Origin: Miltoncostaea oceani
GTDB lineage: Bacteria > Actinomycetota > Thermoleophilia > Miltoncostaeales > Miltoncostaeaceae
Reading direction: 5' to 3'
DNA length: 64,000 nt
Assembly (NCBI RefSeq): GCF_018141545.1
Contig: NZ_CP064356.1
Span: forward strand, 434,001-498,000
Shown: positions 3,645 to 11,338 of the stretch, in pieces
How the letters are laid out: each line of letters opens with the position of its first letter
How positions within the stretch are numbered: position 1 is the stretch's first letter
Notes under the pieces: generated by a model
Seen by the model: the letters and a program-made list of their open reading frames with translations, nothing else
Databases searched by the model: none
Told to the model about the DNA's origin: nothing
Translations under genes and position numbers: made by a program

Positions 3645-4481
3645 CTATCTCCTCGACAGGCTCCGCAGGAGGTCGATCGTGTCACCGTCGTGGGCGGCGG
3701 ACACGCGGAAGCGGCTCTCCAGGTCGAGGGGGACGCCCGGCAGGTCCTCGACGCGGGGCATGCCGACGAGCAGCCCCGTCTCGCGGGCGACGAGCTGCGC
3801 GGCGGCCACGTCGACGGCGCGGCCCGGTCCGAGGCCGGCCATCGCGTCGCCCCGGCCGCCGGCGACGTGGCAGAGCGACAACGCCAGCGACCCGAGGGCG
3901 CGGAGGCGGCCGGCGCGGCCGTCGAGGCGTCCCGCGGCGCGGGCGACGCGGGCGGGGGTCGCCCCCTCCAGCAGCAGCACCGGCAGCCGCCGGGGGTCGG
4001 GTGGCGGCTGCGCCGCGAGGCGCTCCCCGTCGCGCCAGGCGCCCCGGCCGCGCGCGGCGGTCCACTCCTCGCCGGTGCCGTGGTCGCGCACCAGGCCGAG
4101 CGTCACGTCGCCCATCGCCGGACCCCCGGACAGCGCGATCGACGTCGCGAAGAGCGGCATCCCGCGCTTCGCGTTCAGGCTTCCGTCGATGGGATCGACG
4201 ACGACGAGCGGGATGTCGGCGCCCCCGCCGCCGAGGACGACCTCGCCGGCCTCCTCGCTCAGCACCCGCATCGGCCGGCCGAGCGCCTCCAGCTCCTCGA
4301 GGACGACGTCCTCGGCGACCCGATCGATCAGGACGGTCACGTCACCGCCGGCGCCACGCCCCTGGGGCTCGCGGCGGCGGTCCGGCGTCATCGCGGCGGC
4401 GGCGTCGGCGATGCGGTCGCATGCACGCCGGAACGCCGCCAGCCATTCCTCGTGGTCGGCCCCCGGGCCCTCCTCAGGCAT
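3645..4481 (-). CDS. inositol monophosphatase family protein
   Basis: A 278-residue member of the Mg-dependent, lithium-sensitive phosphatase superfamily (IMPase, FBPase, CysQ, HisN). It has the first metal-site segment VLSEEAGE (75-77 SEE) and the signature VVDPIDGSLN at 94-103. The usual C-terminal WDxAAG motif is replaced by AVDVAAAQLV, keeping the Asp that binds metal and sugar but losing the Trp. Substrate could be inositol phosphate, histidinol phosphate, PAP or another small phosphate ester; neighbours do not settle this. Its ATG overlaps the DUF1015 gene stop by eight bases, suggesting that the two are coupled. Confidence 0.85.
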   Translation of the reverse strand: MPEEGPGADHEEWLAAFRRACDRIADAAAAMTPDRRREPQGRGAGGDVTVLIDRVAEDVVLEELEALGRPMRVLSEEAGEVVLGGGGADIPLVVVDPIDGSLNAKRGMPLFATSIALSGGPAMGDVTLGLVRDHGTGEEWTAARGRGAWRDGERLAAQPPPDPRRLPVLLLEGATPARVARAAGRLDGRAGRLRALGSLALSLCHVAGGRGDAMAGLGPGRAVDVAAAQLVARETGLLVGMPRVEDLPGVPLDLESRFRVSAAHDGDTIDLLRSLSRR

Positions 4482-5688
4482 CGACCAGCGAGTGGAACGC
4501 CACGCCGGTCAGCAGCTTGGGGAAGAAGTAGGTCGACTTCTGGGGCATCGTCTCGCCCGCCTCGGCGACGTCGGCGACGGCCGACTTGGGGATGCCGCGC
4601 AGGATCACGGCGGCGGCGATCGCGCCGGAGGCGACGAGCCCGGCGGCCTCGGCGGCGTCCTTGGTGTACGACAGGACCTCGTCGTGGGCCAGGGCGGCCT
4701 GGTCGGCGCCGAGGTGCGGGACGAGGATCTCGCGCTCGAGCGCCGCGACGTCGAGCCGCTCGGCGGGCGACATGCCGGGGCGGGCGGGGGCGGTGAGCAG
4801 GCGCATGCCGTCGGCGGTGACCAGGCCGAGCGCCGCGGAGTCCTCGGGCGCGGCCTCCAGCGCGGCGAGCAGCGCGTCGAGCCCGGCGACGGGGGCGGCG
4901 TCGAACGCGGCGTCGGCGCCCTCGGGCCAGCGGGTCAGCAGGCGGTGCGTCGGGAGGACCACGAGGCCCGGGTCGTCGAGGGCCGTCAGCCCCATCAGCA
5001 CCCGGTCGTGTGGGCCGTCGCCGCCGCCGGCGGCGCGCACCTCGTCACGGTAGGCGAGGGCCGTCTCGTACCGGTGGTGGCCGTCCGCGATCAGGATCCA
5101 GCGGTCGCGCATCGCCTCGGCCACGCCGGCGGCCGCGGCGGGGTCGGCCACCCGCCAGAAGCGGTGGACCGTGCCCTCGGCGTCGCGCACCTCGGCGTCC
5201 GGCTCGCCGGTGGGGGCCACCGCCGCCCACGCGACGCCCTCGGCGTCGGGGTAGAGGCCGAAGACCGGCGACAGGTTGGTCCGCACGGCGCGCGTCAGGC
5301 GCAGGCGGTCCTCCTTCGGGCCGGCGTGGGTGCGCTCGTGGGGGCGCACGACGCGGGCCTCGTACGGCTCCAGCCCGACGGCCGCCAGGATCGTGCGCCG
5401 CTCCCGCGGGACGCCGTCGCCGAGCGTGAAGGACTGGGTCCAGGCGATCAGGACCGGCTCCTCCGAGCGGGTCAGCACGCCGTCGTCGCACCACGCGGAG
5501 ATCAGCCCGGCGACCTCGTCGTAGCCCACCTCCGGCAGGATCAGCCGGACGGCGTTGTAGGGGCTGACCGCGAGGTAGCCGCGGCGCTCCTCCGCCGAGA
5601 TGACGTCGTACGGCGGCGACACGAGGGTCCCGAGGGGGCCCGCCGCGGCGGCGTAGCGCAGGGCGCGGAAGGGTCGGACGTCGGCCAC
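4474..5688 (-). CDS. DUF1015 family protein
   Basis: A 404-residue cytoplasmic protein of the DUF1015 family. Conserved blocks seen are PFRALRY (6-12), SPPYDVIS (24-31), PYNAVRLILPE (43-53), RPHERTHAGPKEDRLRL (115-131), NLSPVFGLYPD (138-148), LIADGHHRYETALAYRDE (199-216) and KSTYFFPKLLTGVAF near the end. The DGHHR block resembles the ParB/sulfiredoxin-type nucleotide-binding motif found in the serine kinases SerK and SbnI; that parallel is inference. Starts at a GTG eight bases after TAGAGT, so the transcript is probably leaderless. First gene of the operon that runs to the phosphatase and YihY genes and divergent from the helicase gene. Confidence 0.88.
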   Translation of the reverse strand: MADVRPFRALRYAAAAGPLGTLVSPPYDVISAEERRGYLAVSPYNAVRLILPEVGYDEVAGLISAWCDDGVLTRSEEPVLIAWTQSFTLGDGVPRERRTILAAVGLEPYEARVVRPHERTHAGPKEDRLRLTRAVRTNLSPVFGLYPDAEGVAWAAVAPTGEPDAEVRDAEGTVHRFWRVADPAAAAGVAEAMRDRWILIADGHHRYETALAYRDEVRAAGGGDGPHDRVLMGLTALDDPGLVVLPTHRLLTRWPEGADAAFDAAPVAGLDALLAALEAAPEDSAALGLVTADGMRLLTAPARPGMSPAERLDVAALEREILVPHLGADQAALAHDEVLSYTKDAAEAAGLVASGAIAAAVILRGIPKSAVADVAEAGETMPQKSTYFFPKLLTGVAFHSLVDA

Positions 5689-5702: not shown

Positions 5703-5755
5703 CCAGCGGGTCGGCGGGTCGTCCGTCACCGCCGCGCGGTGTCCGGCGGGCGGGC

Positions 5756-5761
5756 TACCAT
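5756..5761 (+). promoter_or_regulatory. -10 box TACCAT, leaderless start of helicase gene
   Basis: TACCAT followed by 9 bases and the GTG at 5771, with no Shine-Dalgarno site between. It faces away from the TAGAGT of the DUF1015 gene, so the two share one divergent promoter region. Confidence 0.45.
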
Positions 5762-5770
5762 GACCGGTCC

Positions 5771-8731
5771 GTGACGAGCGACCTGACCCCCGAGCAGCGC
5801 GCCGCGGTCACCCATCCGGGAGGGCCGGCGATCGTGCTCGCCGGCGCCGGCGCCGGCAAGACGCGCGTCCTCTGCCGCCGCCTCGCGTGGCTCGTCGGCG
5901 AGGGCGCCGCGCCCGACGAGATCCTCGCCCTCACGTTCACCCGCGAGGCGGCCGTCGAGCTGCGCGCGCGGGCGGAGGACCTGCTCGGCACCTCCCACGA
6001 GACCCTGCGCGTCACGACGTTCCACTCCTACGCGCAGGAGCTGACGCGCATCCACGGCGTCGAGCGCGGCCTGCTGCCGTCGGTCACGGTGGCGCGCACC
6101 GAGGACCGGATGCTGATGCTCCTCGACCGGCTCGACGAGCTCGACCTGCGCCTCCACGACCTCCGCGGCGACCGCGCCCAGCTCGTCGAGGACCTCGTCG
6201 CGCGCATCGACGCCTGCCGCGACCAGCTCGTGCCGGCCGAGGCGTACCGGCGCTGGGCCGAGGCGCGGGTCGAGGGGGCGCGCTCGGGCTCCGACCTGCA
6301 CAAGGCGCGCCGGGAGCTCGAGATCGCCCGCGTCTACGAGACCCACGACCGCTGGCTGGCGGAGGAGGGCCGCGAGGACTTCGGGTTGTCGATCGTCCGG
6401 GCGCTGGAGCTGATGCGCGCCCACCCCGATCGCCGCGAGGCCGCCCAGGCCGGCGCCCGCCACGTGCTCGTCGACGAGTTCCAGGACACCAACCACGCCC
6501 AGGCCGAGCTGCTCTACGCCGTGGCGGGGGCGTCGGAGAGCCTGGTGGTGGTCGGCGACGACGACCAGGGCATCTACCGCTTCCGCGGCGCCTCGGCGAA
6601 GAACATCCTCGACTTCCGGGCGCGGTACCCCGCCGCGGCCGAGCTGCGCCTCGAACGCAACCATCGCTCCACGCAGACGATCCTCGACGCCGCCACGGCC
6701 GTCGTCGCGCCGATCGCCGACCGCGCCCCGAAGCACAGCGTCGCCCTGCCCGACGCCGCGGGCCCGCCGCCGCGCTTCTGGATCGCCCCGGACCCGGACG
6801 GGCAGGCACGCGCCGTGGTCGAGCGCATCGTCGCCCTCGCGGGGGAGGGGGTGCCGCTCGAGGAGCAGGCGGTGCTGATGCGGGCGGTGCGCCTGGAGGC
6901 CCGCCCCCTCGTCGAGGCGCTGGAGCGCGCGGGCGTCCCCCACCAGGTGCGCGGCGGCATCGGCCTGTTCGAGCGGCGGGAGGTCCGCGCGGCGGTCGCG
7001 TGGTTGCGGGCGGCGTGCGACCCGTCGGCGGTGCAGGAGCACCTGCGCATCGGCGCCGACCCCCGGTTCGGCATCCCCTGGGAGGACCTTGCGGACGCCG
7101 TCACCGCGGCGGCCGCCGGTGGCGGCGGCGTGACCGGTGCGCTCGGGCGGGTGGCGCGCGCCGGCACGGCCGGCCCGCTGGCGGACGCCCTCGACGAGAT
7201 CGGTCGCGCCGCCGCCGAGCTGCCGGCCGCCGACGCGCTGCGCGTCGCGATCGACCGCTCCGGCCTGCGCGCCGCGGCGATCGCGACGGGGGGAGCCGAG
7301 GGCGCGGCCCGGCTCGCGGGCCTCGCCGCGCTGGAGCGCCTCGGCCGCGAGATCGCGGGGCGGGACCCCGCCATCGACGCCCCCGGCCTGTCGCAGCTGC
7401 TCGCCGGCCTCGCCGCCATCGGCTACCGGGGCGAGGGCGTCGCCCCACGCGAGCGCATCGGCGTGCAGGTGATGACGATCCACCAGGCCAAGGGGCTCGA
7501 GTTCGACGCGGTCTTCGTGGTCGGCATGACCCGGGCGGGGTTCCCGGGGGCGGACCGCAGCCGCGTGGACATCCCCGACCAGCTCCTGCCGGAGGTCCTG
7601 CCCCGCGGCCGCGACGCCCACGTCGCGGAGGCGCGCCGGCTGGCGTACGTCGCGATGACCCGTGCACGCCGCCACCTGGTTCTCTGCGCGCCCGCCCACA
7701 ACGGGGCCGGCATCGCGCAGACCCCGTCCCCGTTCTTCGAGGAGGCCCGCGCCGTCCTCGGCGCCGAGGTGGAGGAGGTCGGGGAGGCGCCGGAGCGCGC
7801 GCTGCTCGCCGCCGTGGGCGTCCGCCGGGCCGCCTTCGAGCGCGCGTCGCTGCGCGCCGCCCAGGCCGCGGCCGACGGCGCCGCCGACGCCGACGCGATG
7901 CGGATGGAGGCGGCCCGCGCCGCCGACGCGCTCGTCGACGCCCGCGCCGCGGTGCTGCGCCCCCCGCCGCCGCCCGCCCCCGTCGTCGCCCCGGCCCGCC
8001 CGGCCCGCCCGGGCCTCGAGATCAGCCCGAGCGCCGTCGAGCTCTACCGCGGCTGCCCCCTGCGCTACCGCTACGCGATGGTCGACCACGTGCCGTCGCC
8101 GCCGAGCGTCGCCCGCGCCATCGGGGTCGCCGCGCACTCGGCCCTGGAGGCGCAGTACCGGCCCGACGGCCCGGGGGGCGACGGCGAGGCCCTCGTCCGC
8201 CGGTTCGCGGTGGCGCTGAAGCGCGAGGGCGTGGCGGACACGGCGGAGGGCCGGCAGGCGCTCGCCCGCGGCCGCGACGCCCTGCCCGACTACCACGACC
8301 GCCTGGTGCGGAGCCGCACCCGGCCCGTCGCGGTGGAGCGGGCGTTCACGCTCACCGTCGGCCCCCACCGGGTGCACGGCCGCATCGACCGCATCGACGC
8401 GCACCCCGCGGGCGGTCACCAGCTCGTCGACTACAAGACGGGCAAGCCGCCGACGGCGGGCGCCCGCGGCCCCGGCGACGACCTGGTGCTGCGGCTCTAC
8501 ATGCTCGGCGCCCGCGAGGCGTGGGGGATCACCCCCCGCGGCGCGACGCTCGTGCACGTGCTCGACGGCGACACCCGCGGCGTGCACCCCGACGCCTCCG
8601 ACGACGCGATGGTGGTGGAGGCGGTGCGCGACGCGGTGGAGGGCATCTCGGCGCGGGACTTCACGCCCCGGCCGTCGTGGGCGTGCCGCAGCTGCGACTT
8701 CGCGTTGATCTGCCCGGCGATCGACCGATGA
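5771..8731 (+). CDS. UvrD/PcrA-type helicase fused to RecB-like Fe-S nuclease (AdnB-like)
   Basis: A 986-residue superfamily 1A motor with a C-terminal nuclease. Motor motifs in order: Q-motif LTPEQRAAV, Walker A AGAGAGKT (24-31), ALTFTREAA, LVDEFQDTN (about 232-240), VVVGDDDQGIYRFRGA, ERNHRST, VMTIHQAKGLEFDAVFV (about 568-584) and YVAMTRARRHL. After an Ala/Pro linker comes a PD-(D/E)XK domain with DYKTGKP near 887 and four cysteines (Cys762 in YRGCPLRY and Cys972, 975 and 981 in CRSCDFALIC) in the spacing of the Fe-S staple of AddB, AdnAB and Cas4. The family resects DNA ends; this looks like one half of an AdnAB-type enzyme, but no AdnA partner lies here. GTG start, four-base overlap with the next gene. 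Confidence 0.93.
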   Translation: MTSDLTPEQRAAVTHPGGPAIVLAGAGAGKTRVLCRRLAWLVGEGAAPDEILALTFTREAAVELRARAEDLLGTSHETLRVTTFHSYAQELTRIHGVERGLLPSVTVARTEDRMLMLLDRLDELDLRLHDLRGDRAQLVEDLVARIDACRDQLVPAEAYRRWAEARVEGARSGSDLHKARRELEIARVYETHDRWLAEEGREDFGLSIVRALELMRAHPDRREAAQAGARHVLVDEFQDTNHAQAELLYAVAGASESLVVVGDDDQGIYRFRGASAKNILDFRARYPAAAELRLERNHRSTQTILDAATAVVAPIADRAPKHSVALPDAAGPPPRFWIAPDPDGQARAVVERIVALAGEGVPLEEQAVLMRAVRLEARPLVEALERAGVPHQVRGGIGLFERREVRAAVAWLRAACDPSAVQEHLRIGADPRFGIPWEDLADAVTAAAAGGGGVTGALGRVARAGTAGPLADALDEIGRAAAELPAADALRVAIDRSGLRAAAIATGGAEGAARLAGLAALERLGREIAGRDPAIDAPGLSQLLAGLAAIGYRGEGVAPRERIGVQVMTIHQAKGLEFDAVFVVGMTRAGFPGADRSRVDIPDQLLPEVLPRGRDAHVAEARRLAYVAMTRARRHLVLCAPAHNGAGIAQTPSPFFEEARAVLGAEVEEVGEAPERALLAAVGVRRAAFERASLRAAQAAADGAADADAMRMEAARAADALVDARAAVLRPPPPPAPVVAPARPARPGLEISPSAVELYRGCPLRYRYAMVDHVPSPPSVARAIGVAAHSALEAQYRPDGPGGDGEALVRRFAVALKREGVADTAEGRQALARGRDALPDYHDRLVRSRTRPVAVERAFTLTVGPHRVHGRIDRIDAHPAGGHQLVDYKTGKPPTAGARGPGDDLVLRLYMLGAREAWGITPRGATLVHVLDGDTRGVHPDASDDAMVVEAVRDAVEGISARDFTPRPSWACRSCDFALICPAIDR

Positions 8732-9597
8732 CGGCGATCTCCTCGTTCGCGGCGGGGACGGCGGTGGAGGGTGTCTACGCCGTGCGCCGCAAGGAGCGCC
8801 GCCTGTCGCGCCAGGGCCGCCCGTTCCTGGCGCTCACCCTCGCCGACGCGACGGGTGCGGTGCCCGCGGTGATCTTCGACGAGGCCGACTTCTTCGGGGA
8901 GCAGTTCGAGGAGGGCGACCGGGTGCGCGTCACGGGGCGCGTCACGGAGCGCGACGGCCGGGTGAGCCTCACCGTCGGCCACCTGCGGCCCGCCGCCGAC
9001 GAGGGCGTCGCCGCCGACCTGCTGCCCCGCAGCCACCGCGACCCCGACGAGCTGTTCGGCTTCGTCCTCCACCTCGCCGACGAGGTCGCCGACCCGGGGC
9101 TCCGCCGGGTGCTCGACGCGTTGACGGGCGACGACGACCTGGCGACGGCGTGGCGGACGATGCCGTGCACCCGCTCCGGCCACCACGCCTACATGGGCGG
9201 GCTCGTCGAGCACACCGTCGGCGTGACGGCCGTCGCGCAGGCCCTCACGACGTGGCACCCGCGACTCGACTCCGACCTGCTGCTGGCGGGGGCCCTGGTG
9301 CATGACATCGGCCACGCCCGCGCGTTCCGGCTGGGGGCGACGTTCGAGCTCACCGACGAGGGCCGCCTGCTCGGGCACGTCGCCATCGGCCACGAGATCG
9401 TCGGCGACGCCGCACGCCGGGCGGGCCTCGACGCGACCCGCCGGGCCGAGCTCCTCCACGTCATCGACTGGCACCACGGCCCGCCGCCCGGCCAGGCGCC
9501 GGGCGCCGCGGGGCCCGAGGCGCTCGCGCTGTGGAGGGCGAACCAGCTCGAGACCGGCGTGAAGGCCCGACTGGAGGGCCCGGGCCCGGTCGACTGA
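8728..9597 (+). CDS. OB-fold/HD-domain 3'-5' exonuclease, YhaM family
   Basis: A 289-residue protein with an N-terminal OB-fold (about 1-95; RPFLALTLADATGAVPAVIFDEADFF, then DRVRVTGRV) and a C-terminal HD phosphohydrolase domain. HD metal ligands visible are His152 in SGHHAYMGGLVEHT, the HDIGH box at about 192-196, HVAIGHEIV and HVIDWHHG. This is the layout of Bacillus YhaM and staphylococcal Cbf1, Mn-dependent 3'-5' exonucleases acting on RNA and single-stranded DNA. The ATG overlaps the helicase-nuclease stop (ATGA), so the two products are made together, which hints that DNA ends may be its substrate here. That last point is inference. Confidence 0.9.
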   Translation: MTAISSFAAGTAVEGVYAVRRKERRLSRQGRPFLALTLADATGAVPAVIFDEADFFGEQFEEGDRVRVTGRVTERDGRVSLTVGHLRPAADEGVAADLLPRSHRDPDELFGFVLHLADEVADPGLRRVLDALTGDDDLATAWRTMPCTRSGHHAYMGGLVEHTVGVTAVAQALTTWHPRLDSDLLLAGALVHDIGHARAFRLGATFELTDEGRLLGHVAIGHEIVGDAARRAGLDATRRAELLHVIDWHHGPPPGQAPGAAGPEALALWRANQLETGVKARLEGPGPVD

Positions 9598-9687
9598 GAG
9601 GTTCTGGCAGGAACGCGGGTCCGCACTGGACCTGTGGCCGCCCCTCCCTGGCCCTTCGTCGAGCCGCGCCGGGATGCGGGCCGGGGG

Positions 9688-9693
9688 TACGGT
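9688..9693 (+). promoter_or_regulatory. candidate -10 box TACGGT for VWA gene
   Basis: TACGGT lies about 64 bases before the ATG at 9758. An AAGGGG ribosome site (near 9744) precedes the start, so this gene would have a normal leader, unlike its neighbours. No clear -35 box is seen. Confidence 0.3.
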
Positions 9694-9757
9694 TGCGGCG
9701 CACGCCGGCCGAAGAGTCGACCGACGCCTCCCTGTCACGGATCAAGGGGTACCGCAC

Positions 9758-11338
9758 ATGACACGCACCTCCGGGCCCGGGCGGCTGCTGCGCCGCTCGG
9801 CGGCCCTCGCCGGCGTCCTCGCCCTGTTCGCCTCGGGCACCGCCCTCGCGGACGTGACGGGGACGGTCACGAACTCCGCGGGTGTCCCGCTGCCGGGCAT
9901 CAGCATCCGCGCGACGGAGGCGGACGGGAGCTTCGGCGACTCCGCCACCACCGACGCGAGCGGCAAGTACACGCTGAGCTTCTTCTCCCCGTCGCCCCCG
10001 TTCACCGTGACGGCGACCTACTCCGACCCGTGCCGTGACTCGGCGACCCGGGAGCTGTCGTCGACGTCGCCGGCGATCCCGGACGGCACCGTCCAGAACT
10101 TCACGCTCGACCCCTTCCTGTTCTGCGCGCCGTTCTTCTCCCCGAGCGGCCAGCCGGAGGCGACCGGCAACGCCTGGCCCGAGCGCGGCCAGATCCTCTC
10201 CGGCGCCGGCGGCGTCACGTACCTGCGGGTGCTCGCGCCGTTCGACGCGTCGGCCTTCAGCCTGACGCTCGCCGACGGGACCCCCGTCGGCGGCGGCACC
10301 GACGAGAGCCTGCTGACCCTCACGGCGCCCGCGACCCCCTACAACGGCCCCGTGAACCTGACGTACACCGTCGGCGGCGTCGCCACCACGCGTGCGCTGG
10401 GGACGCTGGTCTCCGGCCAGGTGCTGAACCCGAACCCGCCGGCGGGCGTGAGCGACCTCGCCGCGATCGTCGACATCTCCGGCAGCATGTCGAGCGCCGA
10501 CCCGACGTTCCGCCGCAAGGCGGCGGTGCAGCTGCTCGTCGACCTCTCCGGCCAGGGTGACCGCCTCGTGGCCACCGGCTTCGACGACGCGTTCACCGAG
10601 ATCTTCCCCCGCACCACCATCGCCGGGGAGGCCTCGAAGAACGGCCTGAAGCGCCTCGCCCGCCAGCGGATCGTCAACGACGGCGGGACCGACTACACCG
10701 TCGGCATCGGCGAGGCGTTCAACGCCCTCGCCGCGGACCCGCTGAACCCGGCGACGCCGAAGGCCGCGATCTTCCTGACGGACGGCGCGAACAACGGGAC
10801 TTACCAGAACACCCACCTGCGGTTCGCCTTCAACGGCACCGGCCGCCCGTGGCCGATCTGCGTCGTCCGGCTCGGGACGAGCGGCTTCGCCGCCGCCGAC
10901 ACGGCGCGCCTGAAGCGGATCGCCCGCGAGACCGGCGGCGTCTACAGCGCGACGCCGACGAACACCGAGCTGGAGAACCTCTACTTCCAGTGCCGTGGCC
11001 GCACCTCCGGCGCGAGCACGCTGCTGAAGAAGACGGCGACGTACAAGGTCGGCCAGCGCCGTGTCTACTCCCGCGCCATCAAGAAGGGCCAGCGCAAGGC
11101 GACGTTCTTCGTCGGCTGGGGCGTCGGCAAGTACGCCATCCAGGCCGTGCAGCCGGGCGGCAGGACCTACACGAAGTCCACCGGCAAGGCCGTCCGCCTC
11201 GTCCGCGGGAAGACCTTCGCGTTCTTCGAGGTCCAGAACCCGAAGGCCGGTCTCTGGCGCCTCCGCGTCACGCGCCTCGCGACGGGAGCCCCGACGGACA
11301 AGGCCACCACGACGGTGACGGTGCAGAAGAGGCGTTAG
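9758..11338 (+). CDS. secreted VWA-domain protein with carboxypeptidase-regulatory-like domain
   Basis: A 526-residue exported protein. The signal peptide ends at ALA-D (about residue 31). Residues 32-105 form a carboxypeptidase-regulatory-like beta domain (DVTGTVTNSAGVPLPGISI... ASGKYTLSF). A von Willebrand A domain spans about 230-430 with MIDAS residues DISGSMS (from Asp239), a threonine in GGTDYT and LTDGANN near 340. The C-terminal 100 residues are rich in Lys/Arg with a beta-sandwich look and no membrane anchor or sorting signal. VWA domains bind protein ligands through a metal ion, so a role in surface adhesion or assembly is likely; the partner is unknown. Fairly GC-poor codons are not seen, so no sign of recent transfer. 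Confidence 0.82.
   Translation: MTRTSGPGRLLRRSAALAGVLALFASGTALADVTGTVTNSAGVPLPGISIRATEADGSFGDSATTDASGKYTLSFFSPSPPFTVTATYSDPCRDSATRELSSTSPAIPDGTVQNFTLDPFLFCAPFFSPSGQPEATGNAWPERGQILSGAGGVTYLRVLAPFDASAFSLTLADGTPVGGGTDESLLTLTAPATPYNGPVNLTYTVGGVATTRALGTLVSGQVLNPNPPAGVSDLAAIVDISGSMSSADPTFRRKAAVQLLVDLSGQGDRLVATGFDDAFTEIFPRTTIAGEASKNGLKRLARQRIVNDGGTDYTVGIGEAFNALAADPLNPATPKAAIFLTDGANNGTYQNTHLRFAFNGTGRPWPICVVRLGTSGFAAADTARLKRIARETGGVYSATPTNTELENLYFQCRGRTSGASTLLKKTATYKVGQRRVYSRAIKKGQRKATFFVGWGVGKYAIQAVQPGGRTYTKSTGKAVRLVRGKTFAFFEVQNPKAGLWRLRVTRLATGAPTDKATTTVTVQKRR

What the first reader, a model, noticed from the sequence alone, without database searches (positions are those of the whole stretch)
5771..9597. 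AdnB-like helicase-nuclease translationally coupled to a YhaM-type exonuclease
The helicase carries a complete SF1A motor and a four-cysteine RecB-like nuclease domain, yet no AdnA half is next to it. Instead the stop overlaps the start of an OB/HD 3'-5' exonuclease. YhaM proteins are usually studied as RNases; a fixed partnership with a DNA end-processing motor suggests a DNA role, for example trimming single strands made by the helicase. This may be a break-processing module not yet described.
Basis: partly seen in the sequence, partly recalled or inferred. Interest (0 to 1): 0.6.

Follow-up and report, generated by a model that had tools for sequence, protein, structure and literature searches.

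The report
DNA-repair helicase-nuclease operon with YhaM exonuclease
A bacterial gene pair, a DNA-unwinding nuclease followed by an exonuclease usually studied as an RNA trimmer, is inherited together in one bacterial family and carries the same promoter element as DNA-break-repair genes, so the pair probably works on damaged DNA, although the partnership itself is unproven.

Summary
In detail: a 986-aa UvrD-type helicase fused to a four-cysteine PD-(D/E)XK nuclease (5771-8731) overlaps by 4 bp a YhaM-family OB/HD exonuclease (8728-9597). In the window's family 34 of 34 genomes with both genes have them side by side. The "fixed module" reading is weaker: the genome also has AddB-AddA; in sister families a convergent PAC2 gene separates the two; about 11 genomes keep the nuclease without the syntenic YhaM, and several families keep YhaM in place without the helicase. 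YhaM's tie to break repair is already known (Bacillus yhaONM). New here: (1) a promoter element, GTCCG-N10-TAnnnT, precedes the operon in 15 of 18 loci, and also addBA and a UvrD-like helicase in this genome, and recQ, recJ, sbcD, udg and ruvA in a relative; it has the spacing of the mycobacterial PafBC damage promoter. (2) In sister families the helicase motor is mostly decayed while nuclease residues and cysteines are invariant. Best reading: a repair-regulon operon for DNA end processing in which YhaM trims 3' DNA; direct partnership is inferred. New variant of a known kind.

The parts
5771..8731 (+). UvrD/PcrA-type SF1A helicase fused to a C-terminal four-cysteine PD-(D/E)XK (RecB/Cas4-type) nuclease, 986 aa, GTG start
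   Evidence: Pfam PF00580/PF13361/PF12705; motifs and invariant residues; AlphaFold2 model pLDDT 88.7, pTM 0.82 matching UvrD/PcrA/Rep and AdnB
8728..9597 (+). YhaM-family exonuclease: N-terminal OB fold, C-terminal HD domain, 289 aa; ATG overlaps the helicase stop
   Evidence: PF01336 + PF01966; PDB 9h3f E=2.3e-26; HD pair H192/D193 and H152/H153/H162/H217/H249/H250 invariant in 18 relatives; model Z 21.7 to 9h3f
5741..5761 (+). promoter-like element GTCCG-N10-TAnnnT (GTCCGGCGGGCGGGCTACCAT), about 10 bp before the helicase start
   Evidence: conserved in 15 of 18 loci of the family; only exact match in the 64 kb window; same element before addB and a UvrD-like helicase of this genome
4474..5688 (-). 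DUF1015 protein, divergent neighbour; conserved left border of the block
   Evidence: PF06245; synteny in relatives
3645..4481 (-). inositol-monophosphatase-family protein; conserved left border of the block
   Evidence: PF00459; synteny in relatives

Best explanation
A two-gene DNA-repair operon. A damage-type promoter (GTCCG-N10-TAnnnT) drives a single-chain 3'-to-5' helicase with an iron-sulphur RecB-type nuclease, which unwinds and cuts DNA at ends, gaps or flaps, and, by overlapping translation, a YhaM-family Mn-dependent 3'-5' exonuclease that removes 3' single-stranded DNA left by that activity. It works alongside AddAB where AddAB is present, and is the only RecB-family enzyme found in some relatives. 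Shown by computation: the operon, its conservation in the family, intact catalytic residues, and the promoter element shared with other repair genes. Inferred: damage induction, iron-sulphur cluster, polarity, DNA as YhaM's relevant substrate, and any physical contact.
For: Adjacent and same strand in 34/34 family genomes with both genes, gap -1 to 20 bp, while the gene after YhaM is not conserved. Motor, nuclease and HD residues intact in the family. Promoter element in 15/18 loci. In relative G019 the element occurs 17 times at N10 spacing against a mean of 5.0 at ten other spacings, and 9 against 0.9 directly before ORFs; those nine are RecQ, SbcD-like nuclease (followed by an SbcC-like ATPase), UDG, RuvA, RecJ, HU, FtsZ, SerA and an E1 dehydrogenase. 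In the window genome the three exact matches in about 100 kb in hand precede hel-yhaM, addBA and a UvrD-like helicase; also addB in G007 and a UvrD-HRDC helicase in G113. Independent AddB-AddA-YhaM gene order in two genomes of another family. Literature: YhaM degrades ssDNA in vitro (PMC11347170); yhaONM is SOS-induced in Bacillus (PMC3896406).
Against: No expression or binding data. Element matches in G019 also precede FtsZ, SerA and a metabolic enzyme, and recA, uvrA, uvrB, ruvC, pcrA and mfd of G019 have none, so it could mark a wider promoter class. The element was defined from the helicase promoters and the repair count is post hoc. YhaM persists without the helicase in several families and the nuclease without the syntenic YhaM in about 11 genomes, so neither needs the other. 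YhaM's best-documented in vivo work is on RNA (PMC11347170), and a B. subtilis yhaM deletion was not a mutator (PMC5627055).
Confidence: 0.55

Rival explanations
1. Neighbours by inheritance, not partners: the class ancestor had IMPase, DUF1015, helicase-nuclease, (PAC2) and YhaM in one block; loss or absence of the convergent PAC2 gene in the window's lineage left helicase and YhaM abutting. YhaM remains a general 3' exoribonuclease that merely rides on the helicase transcript.
For: Helicase, convergent PAC2, YhaM order in families f5/f7/f9/f10 (52 genomes with the two within 5 kb; PAC2 confirmed in the loci read); PAC2 sits elsewhere in the window genome; Gaiellales-like families keep DUF1015 and YhaM without the helicase. 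YhaM acts on RNA in Staphylococcus (PMC11347170).
Against: In every genome with both genes on one contig they kept the same strand and order (34 + 57) although the next gene downstream changes; short gaps in the family; repair-gene promoter element upstream; independent AddBA-YhaM linkage.
Confidence: 0.28
2. The helicase-nuclease is the main break-resection enzyme of these bacteria, standing in for AddAB/RecBCD, with YhaM as its dedicated accessory.
For: Seven relatives at 93-99% completeness have no other RecB-family nuclease-helicase detected (G019, G031, G037, G049, G061, G067, G095).
Against: The window genome and others carry AddAB or RecB as well; no inverse pattern; G019 also has recQ, recJ and sbcD-like genes for resection; in the sister families the motor is mostly decayed.
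Confidence: 0.1
3. An anti-phage or anti-plasmid nuclease, like the UvrD-Cas4 fusions proposed to act in defence loci, or Gabija.
For: UvrD-Cas4 fusions often lie in defence contexts (PMC5704561); PADLOC GajB models match the motor.
Against: The GajB match is to the generic UvrD motor; neighbours are housekeeping-type genes kept in place across the class; no defence gene seen in the flanks read.
Confidence: 0.04

Closest known systems
UvrD-Cas4 (pfam12705) helicase-nuclease fusions, Hudaiberdiev et al. 2017 (PMC5704561)
   Same: UvrD-type SF1 motor with a Cas4/RecB-like nuclease in one chain; often stand-alone; no separate partner subunit
   Different: No YhaM link or repair-type promoter in the passages read; motor decay with a kept nuclease in a whole lineage not mentioned there; membership in their monophyletic clade was not tested
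AdnAB (mycobacterial helicase-nuclease), AdnB subunit
   Same: Motor plus C-terminal nuclease layout; AdnB chains match the model over about 630 residues at 3.3 A; grouping with AdnB not rejected
   Different: No AdnA; the C-terminal CxxC...C motif is in the first gene, not the second, of three actinobacterial pairs, while the window protein has it
Bacillus yhaONM (SbcD-like YhaO, SMC-like YhaN, YhaM)
   Same: YhaM encoded with DNA-end processing enzymes and induced with the SOS regulon (PMC3896406)
   Different: Partner is an SbcCD-like pair, not a UvrD-nuclease; LexA there, a PafBC-like element here
Bad, bacterial DNA2-like helicase-nuclease (PMC7430649)
   Same: Single-chain helicase with a four-cysteine iron-sulphur RecB-family nuclease
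   Different: SF1B 5'-3' motor with the helicase domain C-terminal to the nuclease; no YhaM link known
Mycobacterial PafBC / P1 promoter, tTGTCRgtg-8nt-TannnT (PMC5656591)
   Same: GTC to TAnnnT distance identical (15 nt); precedes repair genes
   Different: C instead of R after GTC, flanking letters not conserved; no PafBC homologue was identified

Membership tests
YhaM 3'-5' exonuclease family | N-terminal OB fold and C-terminal HD domain over the full length | tested here: met
YhaM 3'-5' exonuclease family | HD-domain metal/catalytic residues (H192/D193 in S. aureus) | tested here: met
   H192, D193 and other histidines invariant in 18 relatives, aligned to 9h3f
YhaM 3'-5' exonuclease family | NCBI equivalog cut-off for YhaM (460 bits) | tested here: not met
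   109.3 bits: family-level relative, not NCBI's equivalog
YhaM 3'-5' exonuclease family | Mn-dependent 3'-5' exonuclease activity, hexamer | not testable with these tools
   needs purified protein
UvrD-Cas4 (pfam12705) fusion | UvrD motor fused to a C-terminal pfam12705 nuclease with four cysteines | tested here: met
UvrD-Cas4 (pfam12705) fusion | belongs to the published monophyletic fusion clade | tested here: inconclusive
   window clade next to other-phylum fusions in the free tree with support 7.8 only; the published sequences were not in hand
AdnAB (AdnB) | encoded next to an AdnA subunit | tested here: not met
   neighbours are DUF1015 and YhaM; no AdnA among PF00580/PF12705 matches of the genome
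AdnAB (AdnB) | motor groups with AdnB in a tree | tested here: inconclusive
   free tree separates them; constrained tree not rejected, p-AU 0.79
AddAB | AddA or AddB subunit by curated model | tested here: not met
   addA_Gpos 111.7 bits against cut-off 707.65; a true AddB-AddA pair lies elsewhere in the genome
PafBC (RecA-independent) damage regulon | GTC placed 15 nt before TAnnnT, upstream of repair genes | tested here: met
PafBC (RecA-independent) damage regulon | full consensus tTGTCRgtg | tested here: not met
   GTCCG with unconserved flanks; GTCAG and GTCGG variants little or not enriched
PafBC (RecA-independent) damage regulon | PafB/PafC WYL regulators present | tested here: inconclusive
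   only crude motif searches in G019, nothing found

The most novel reading that the evidence does not exclude
A previously undescribed PafBC-like DNA-repair regulon in this actinobacterial order includes a two-protein end-processing machine, a single-chain helicase-nuclease plus a YhaM DNA exonuclease, that serves as the only RecB-family resection system in several streamlined relatives, while in sister families the same protein has become a motor-dead nuclease.
Probability: 0.18. Interest if true: 0.72.

Novelty: new variant of a known kind. Interest (0 to 1): 0.5.

Why it matters
YhaM is treated mainly as an RNase, yet it is now seen linked to three different kinds of DNA-end processing enzymes: SbcCD-like in Bacillus, AddAB in one actinobacterial family, and this helicase-nuclease. 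If the family's YhaM acts on DNA in the cell, its role in many Gram-positives needs re-reading. The promoter element also gives a concrete, testable candidate for a DNA-repair regulon in a class for which I found no study of the damage response, and the lineage with a dead motor and a kept nuclease is a natural experiment on what the helicase half is for.

Tried and rejected
AdnB with a lost AdnA as a firm identity: the free tree puts AdnA, AdnB, PcrA, other-phylum fusions and the window clade apart, but the test does not reject window+AdnB, so left open. A pair conserved in the fused helicase-nucleases of other phyla: no YhaM found in the loci L032-L091, up to about 6 kb each side. Inverse correlation with AddAB/RecBCD: not seen. 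YhaM neighbours in the rest of the phylum: mostly unrelated genes, except AddB-AddA-YhaM in two of six f29 genomes with YhaM. The element before YhaM in families without the helicase, or before the helicase in Solirubrobacterales-like families: not found. WYL/PafBC genes in G019: crude motif search found none, not conclusive. Defence system: PADLOC matches are generic UvrD motor matches.
Full report
What is there. The window (C1:434001-498000 of a 4.54 Mb, 3-contig genome) holds, on the + strand, a 986-aa protein at 5771-8731 with a UvrD/PcrA-type SF1 motor and a C-terminal PD-(D/E)XK nuclease, and at 8728-9597 a 289-aa OB/HD protein of the YhaM family. The stop and start overlap as ATGA. To the left, divergent, lie DUF1015 (4474-5688) and an IMPase-family gene (3645-4481). 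The closest named relatives of the helicase are Thermoleophilia / Miltoncostaeales metagenome assemblies. Family codes f1, f5 and so on below are the tool's own unnamed codes; my use of 'Solirubrobacterales-like' and 'Gaiellales-like' for them is inference.

Is the protein intact? Motor residues K30, D235, E236, Q266, R299, H571, K574, G575, E577, R631 and nuclease residues H789, D873, D887, K889 with cysteines 762, 972, 975, 981 are present in all of 17 family members and 26 fused proteins of other phyla. The AlphaFold2 model (pLDDT 88.7, pTM 0.82) matches UvrD/PcrA/Rep (Z 33-41, rmsd 8-12 A) and AdnB (Z 31-33, rmsd about 3.3 A over 624-644 residues). Four cysteines spanning the domain are the signature of the iron-staple nucleases AddB, Cas4, DNA2 and Bad (PMC7430649); the cluster itself is inferred here. 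YhaM's model matches the cryo-EM YhaM 9h3f in the HD part (Z 21.7, 2.7 A, 180 residues).

Which helicase is it? A motor tree places the window clade (its family plus the Solirubrobacterales-like families, SH-aLRT 100) apart from AdnA, AdnB, AddA, PcrA and the fusions of other phyla, but the order of these groups is weakly supported, and a tree with the window clade joined to AdnB was not rejected and scored slightly better (p-AU 0.79). In three actinobacterial AdnAB-type pairs the CxxC...C motif is in the first gene and not the second. So 'AdnB-like' describes the layout; descent is open. The genome has no AdnA but has a real AddB-AddA pair (L004:5323-11558), a PcrA and a UvrD-like helicase.

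How conserved is the pair? Among 249 genomes of the class, YhaM is in 234. In the window's family, all 34 genomes with both genes have them abutting, -1 to 20 bp. 42 genomes of the family were searched; in two that lacked one gene and that I read (L142, L160), the helicase lies next to DUF1015 and runs towards a contig end. In families f5, f7, f9 and f10, 57 genomes have both on one contig, always same strand and helicase first, 52 within 5 kb and mostly about 1 kb apart, with a convergent PAC2 gene between in the loci read. In f3 and f11, YhaM sits directly beside DUF1015-IMPase with no helicase. About 11 genomes of f5/f7/f9 keep the nuclease but only a distant YhaM paralogue. The simplest history is one ancestral block, with PAC2 lost from or inserted into it in one lineage and the helicase lost in another. 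The right border of the block is YhaM: the next gene differs among family members. So linkage is old, coupling is local, and neither partner depends on the other.

An unexpected pattern. In f5, f7 and f9, 29 of 38 sequences have lost two or more of ten core motor residues (for example K30 in 7 of 8 f5 sequences, K574 in 17 of 24 and H571 in 15 of 24 f7 sequences) and only six have lost none, yet all 38 keep the four nuclease residues and four cysteines; f10 and the window's family keep the motor. Selection holds the nuclease; the motor has decayed, as in AddB. These proteins still neighbour YhaM.

With or instead of AddAB? Within the family, AddAB is found in several genomes, RecB-type enzymes in others, and in seven genomes of 93-99% completeness (G019, G031, G037, G049, G061, G067, G095) the window-type protein is the only RecB-family nuclease-helicase detected. 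There is no replacement pattern.

Regulation. The gap before the helicase carries GTCCG-N10-TAnnnT about 10 bp before the start codon, present in 15 of 18 family loci whose flanking sequence has diverged. It is the only exact match in the 64 kb window (0.47 expected). I then tested it elsewhere. In G019, a relative from which I took 1.39 Mb in stretches, the motif occurs 17 times with N10 against a mean of 5.0 over ten other spacings, and nine times against 0.9 within 4-70 bp of an ORF start; one-letter variants are little or not enriched. The nine genes are RecQ, an SbcD-like nuclease followed by an SbcC-like ATPase, UDG, RuvA, RecJ, HU, FtsZ, SerA and an E1-dehydrogenase fusion. If 40-80 of about 1450 genes are repair genes (my estimate), five of nine has probability 1e-6 to 5e-5; this is post hoc. 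In the window's genome only about 100 kb is in hand, and its three exact matches lie directly before hel-yhaM, addB (L004:5296) and the UvrD-like helicase (L158:1215). G007 has it before addB, and G113 and G134 have it in the loci of a UvrD-type helicase (HRDC-bearing in G113). The GTC-to-TAnnnT distance equals that of the mycobacterial RecA-independent P1/PafBC promoter tTGTCRgtg-8nt-TannnT (PMC5656591). recA, uvrA, uvrB, ruvC, pcrA and mfd of G019 lack it, and no PafBC gene was found by a crude search, so I call it PafBC-like in form only.

Other links of YhaM to break repair. In two f29 genomes YhaM directly follows AddB-AddA (L162, L163), but not in the two others of that family that I read. 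In Bacillus, yhaONM is LexA/SOS-regulated and described as a putative double-strand-break repair cluster (PMC3896406). B. subtilis YhaM degrades ssRNA and ssDNA with Mn (PMC11347170); a yhaM deletion did not raise the mutation rate (PMC5627055).

Conclusion. The pair is real and most likely a DNA-repair operon. That YhaM trims 3' DNA made by the helicase-nuclease is the most economical mechanism but is inferred; inherited neighbourhood with an RNA role for YhaM remains the main rival.

Noticed in passing
L118-L135, L182-L201: In Solirubrobacterales-like families the window-type protein has a decayed helicase motor but an invariant four-cysteine nuclease (29 of 38 with two or more core motor residues lost).
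   Followed up: partly
L260, L262, L271, L272, L220, L246 (genome G019); L004:5296; L158:1215; L139:1471; L154:813: GTCCG-N10-TAnnnT element before recJ, recQ, sbcD-like, udg, ruvA, HU and ftsZ in G019, and before addB and UvrD-like helicases in the window genome and relatives: a candidate DNA-repair regulon.
   Followed up: partly
L162:1680-9142 and L163: Gene order AddB-AddA-YhaM in two genomes of another actinobacterial family (f29), an independent link of YhaM to a break-resection enzyme.
   Followed up: partly
L097-L102, L104, L110-L112, L118-L137: A convergent PAC2-family gene lies between helicase and YhaM in the sister families; in the window genome PAC2 is at C1:3.397 Mb, about 14 kb from addBA.
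   Followed up: no
class-wide, f5/f6/f7/f9 genomes: Many genomes of other families hold two YhaM-type genes, one syntenic and one more distant paralogue.
   Followed up: no
family f1: AddAB, RecB-type enzymes, or neither are scattered among closely related genomes, suggesting frequent loss or exchange of the main resection enzyme.
   Followed up: partly
window 9674-11338: Downstream gene with VWA, carboxypeptidase-regulatory and Ig-like domains, a probable secreted or surface protein, not conserved next to YhaM in relatives.
   Followed up: no
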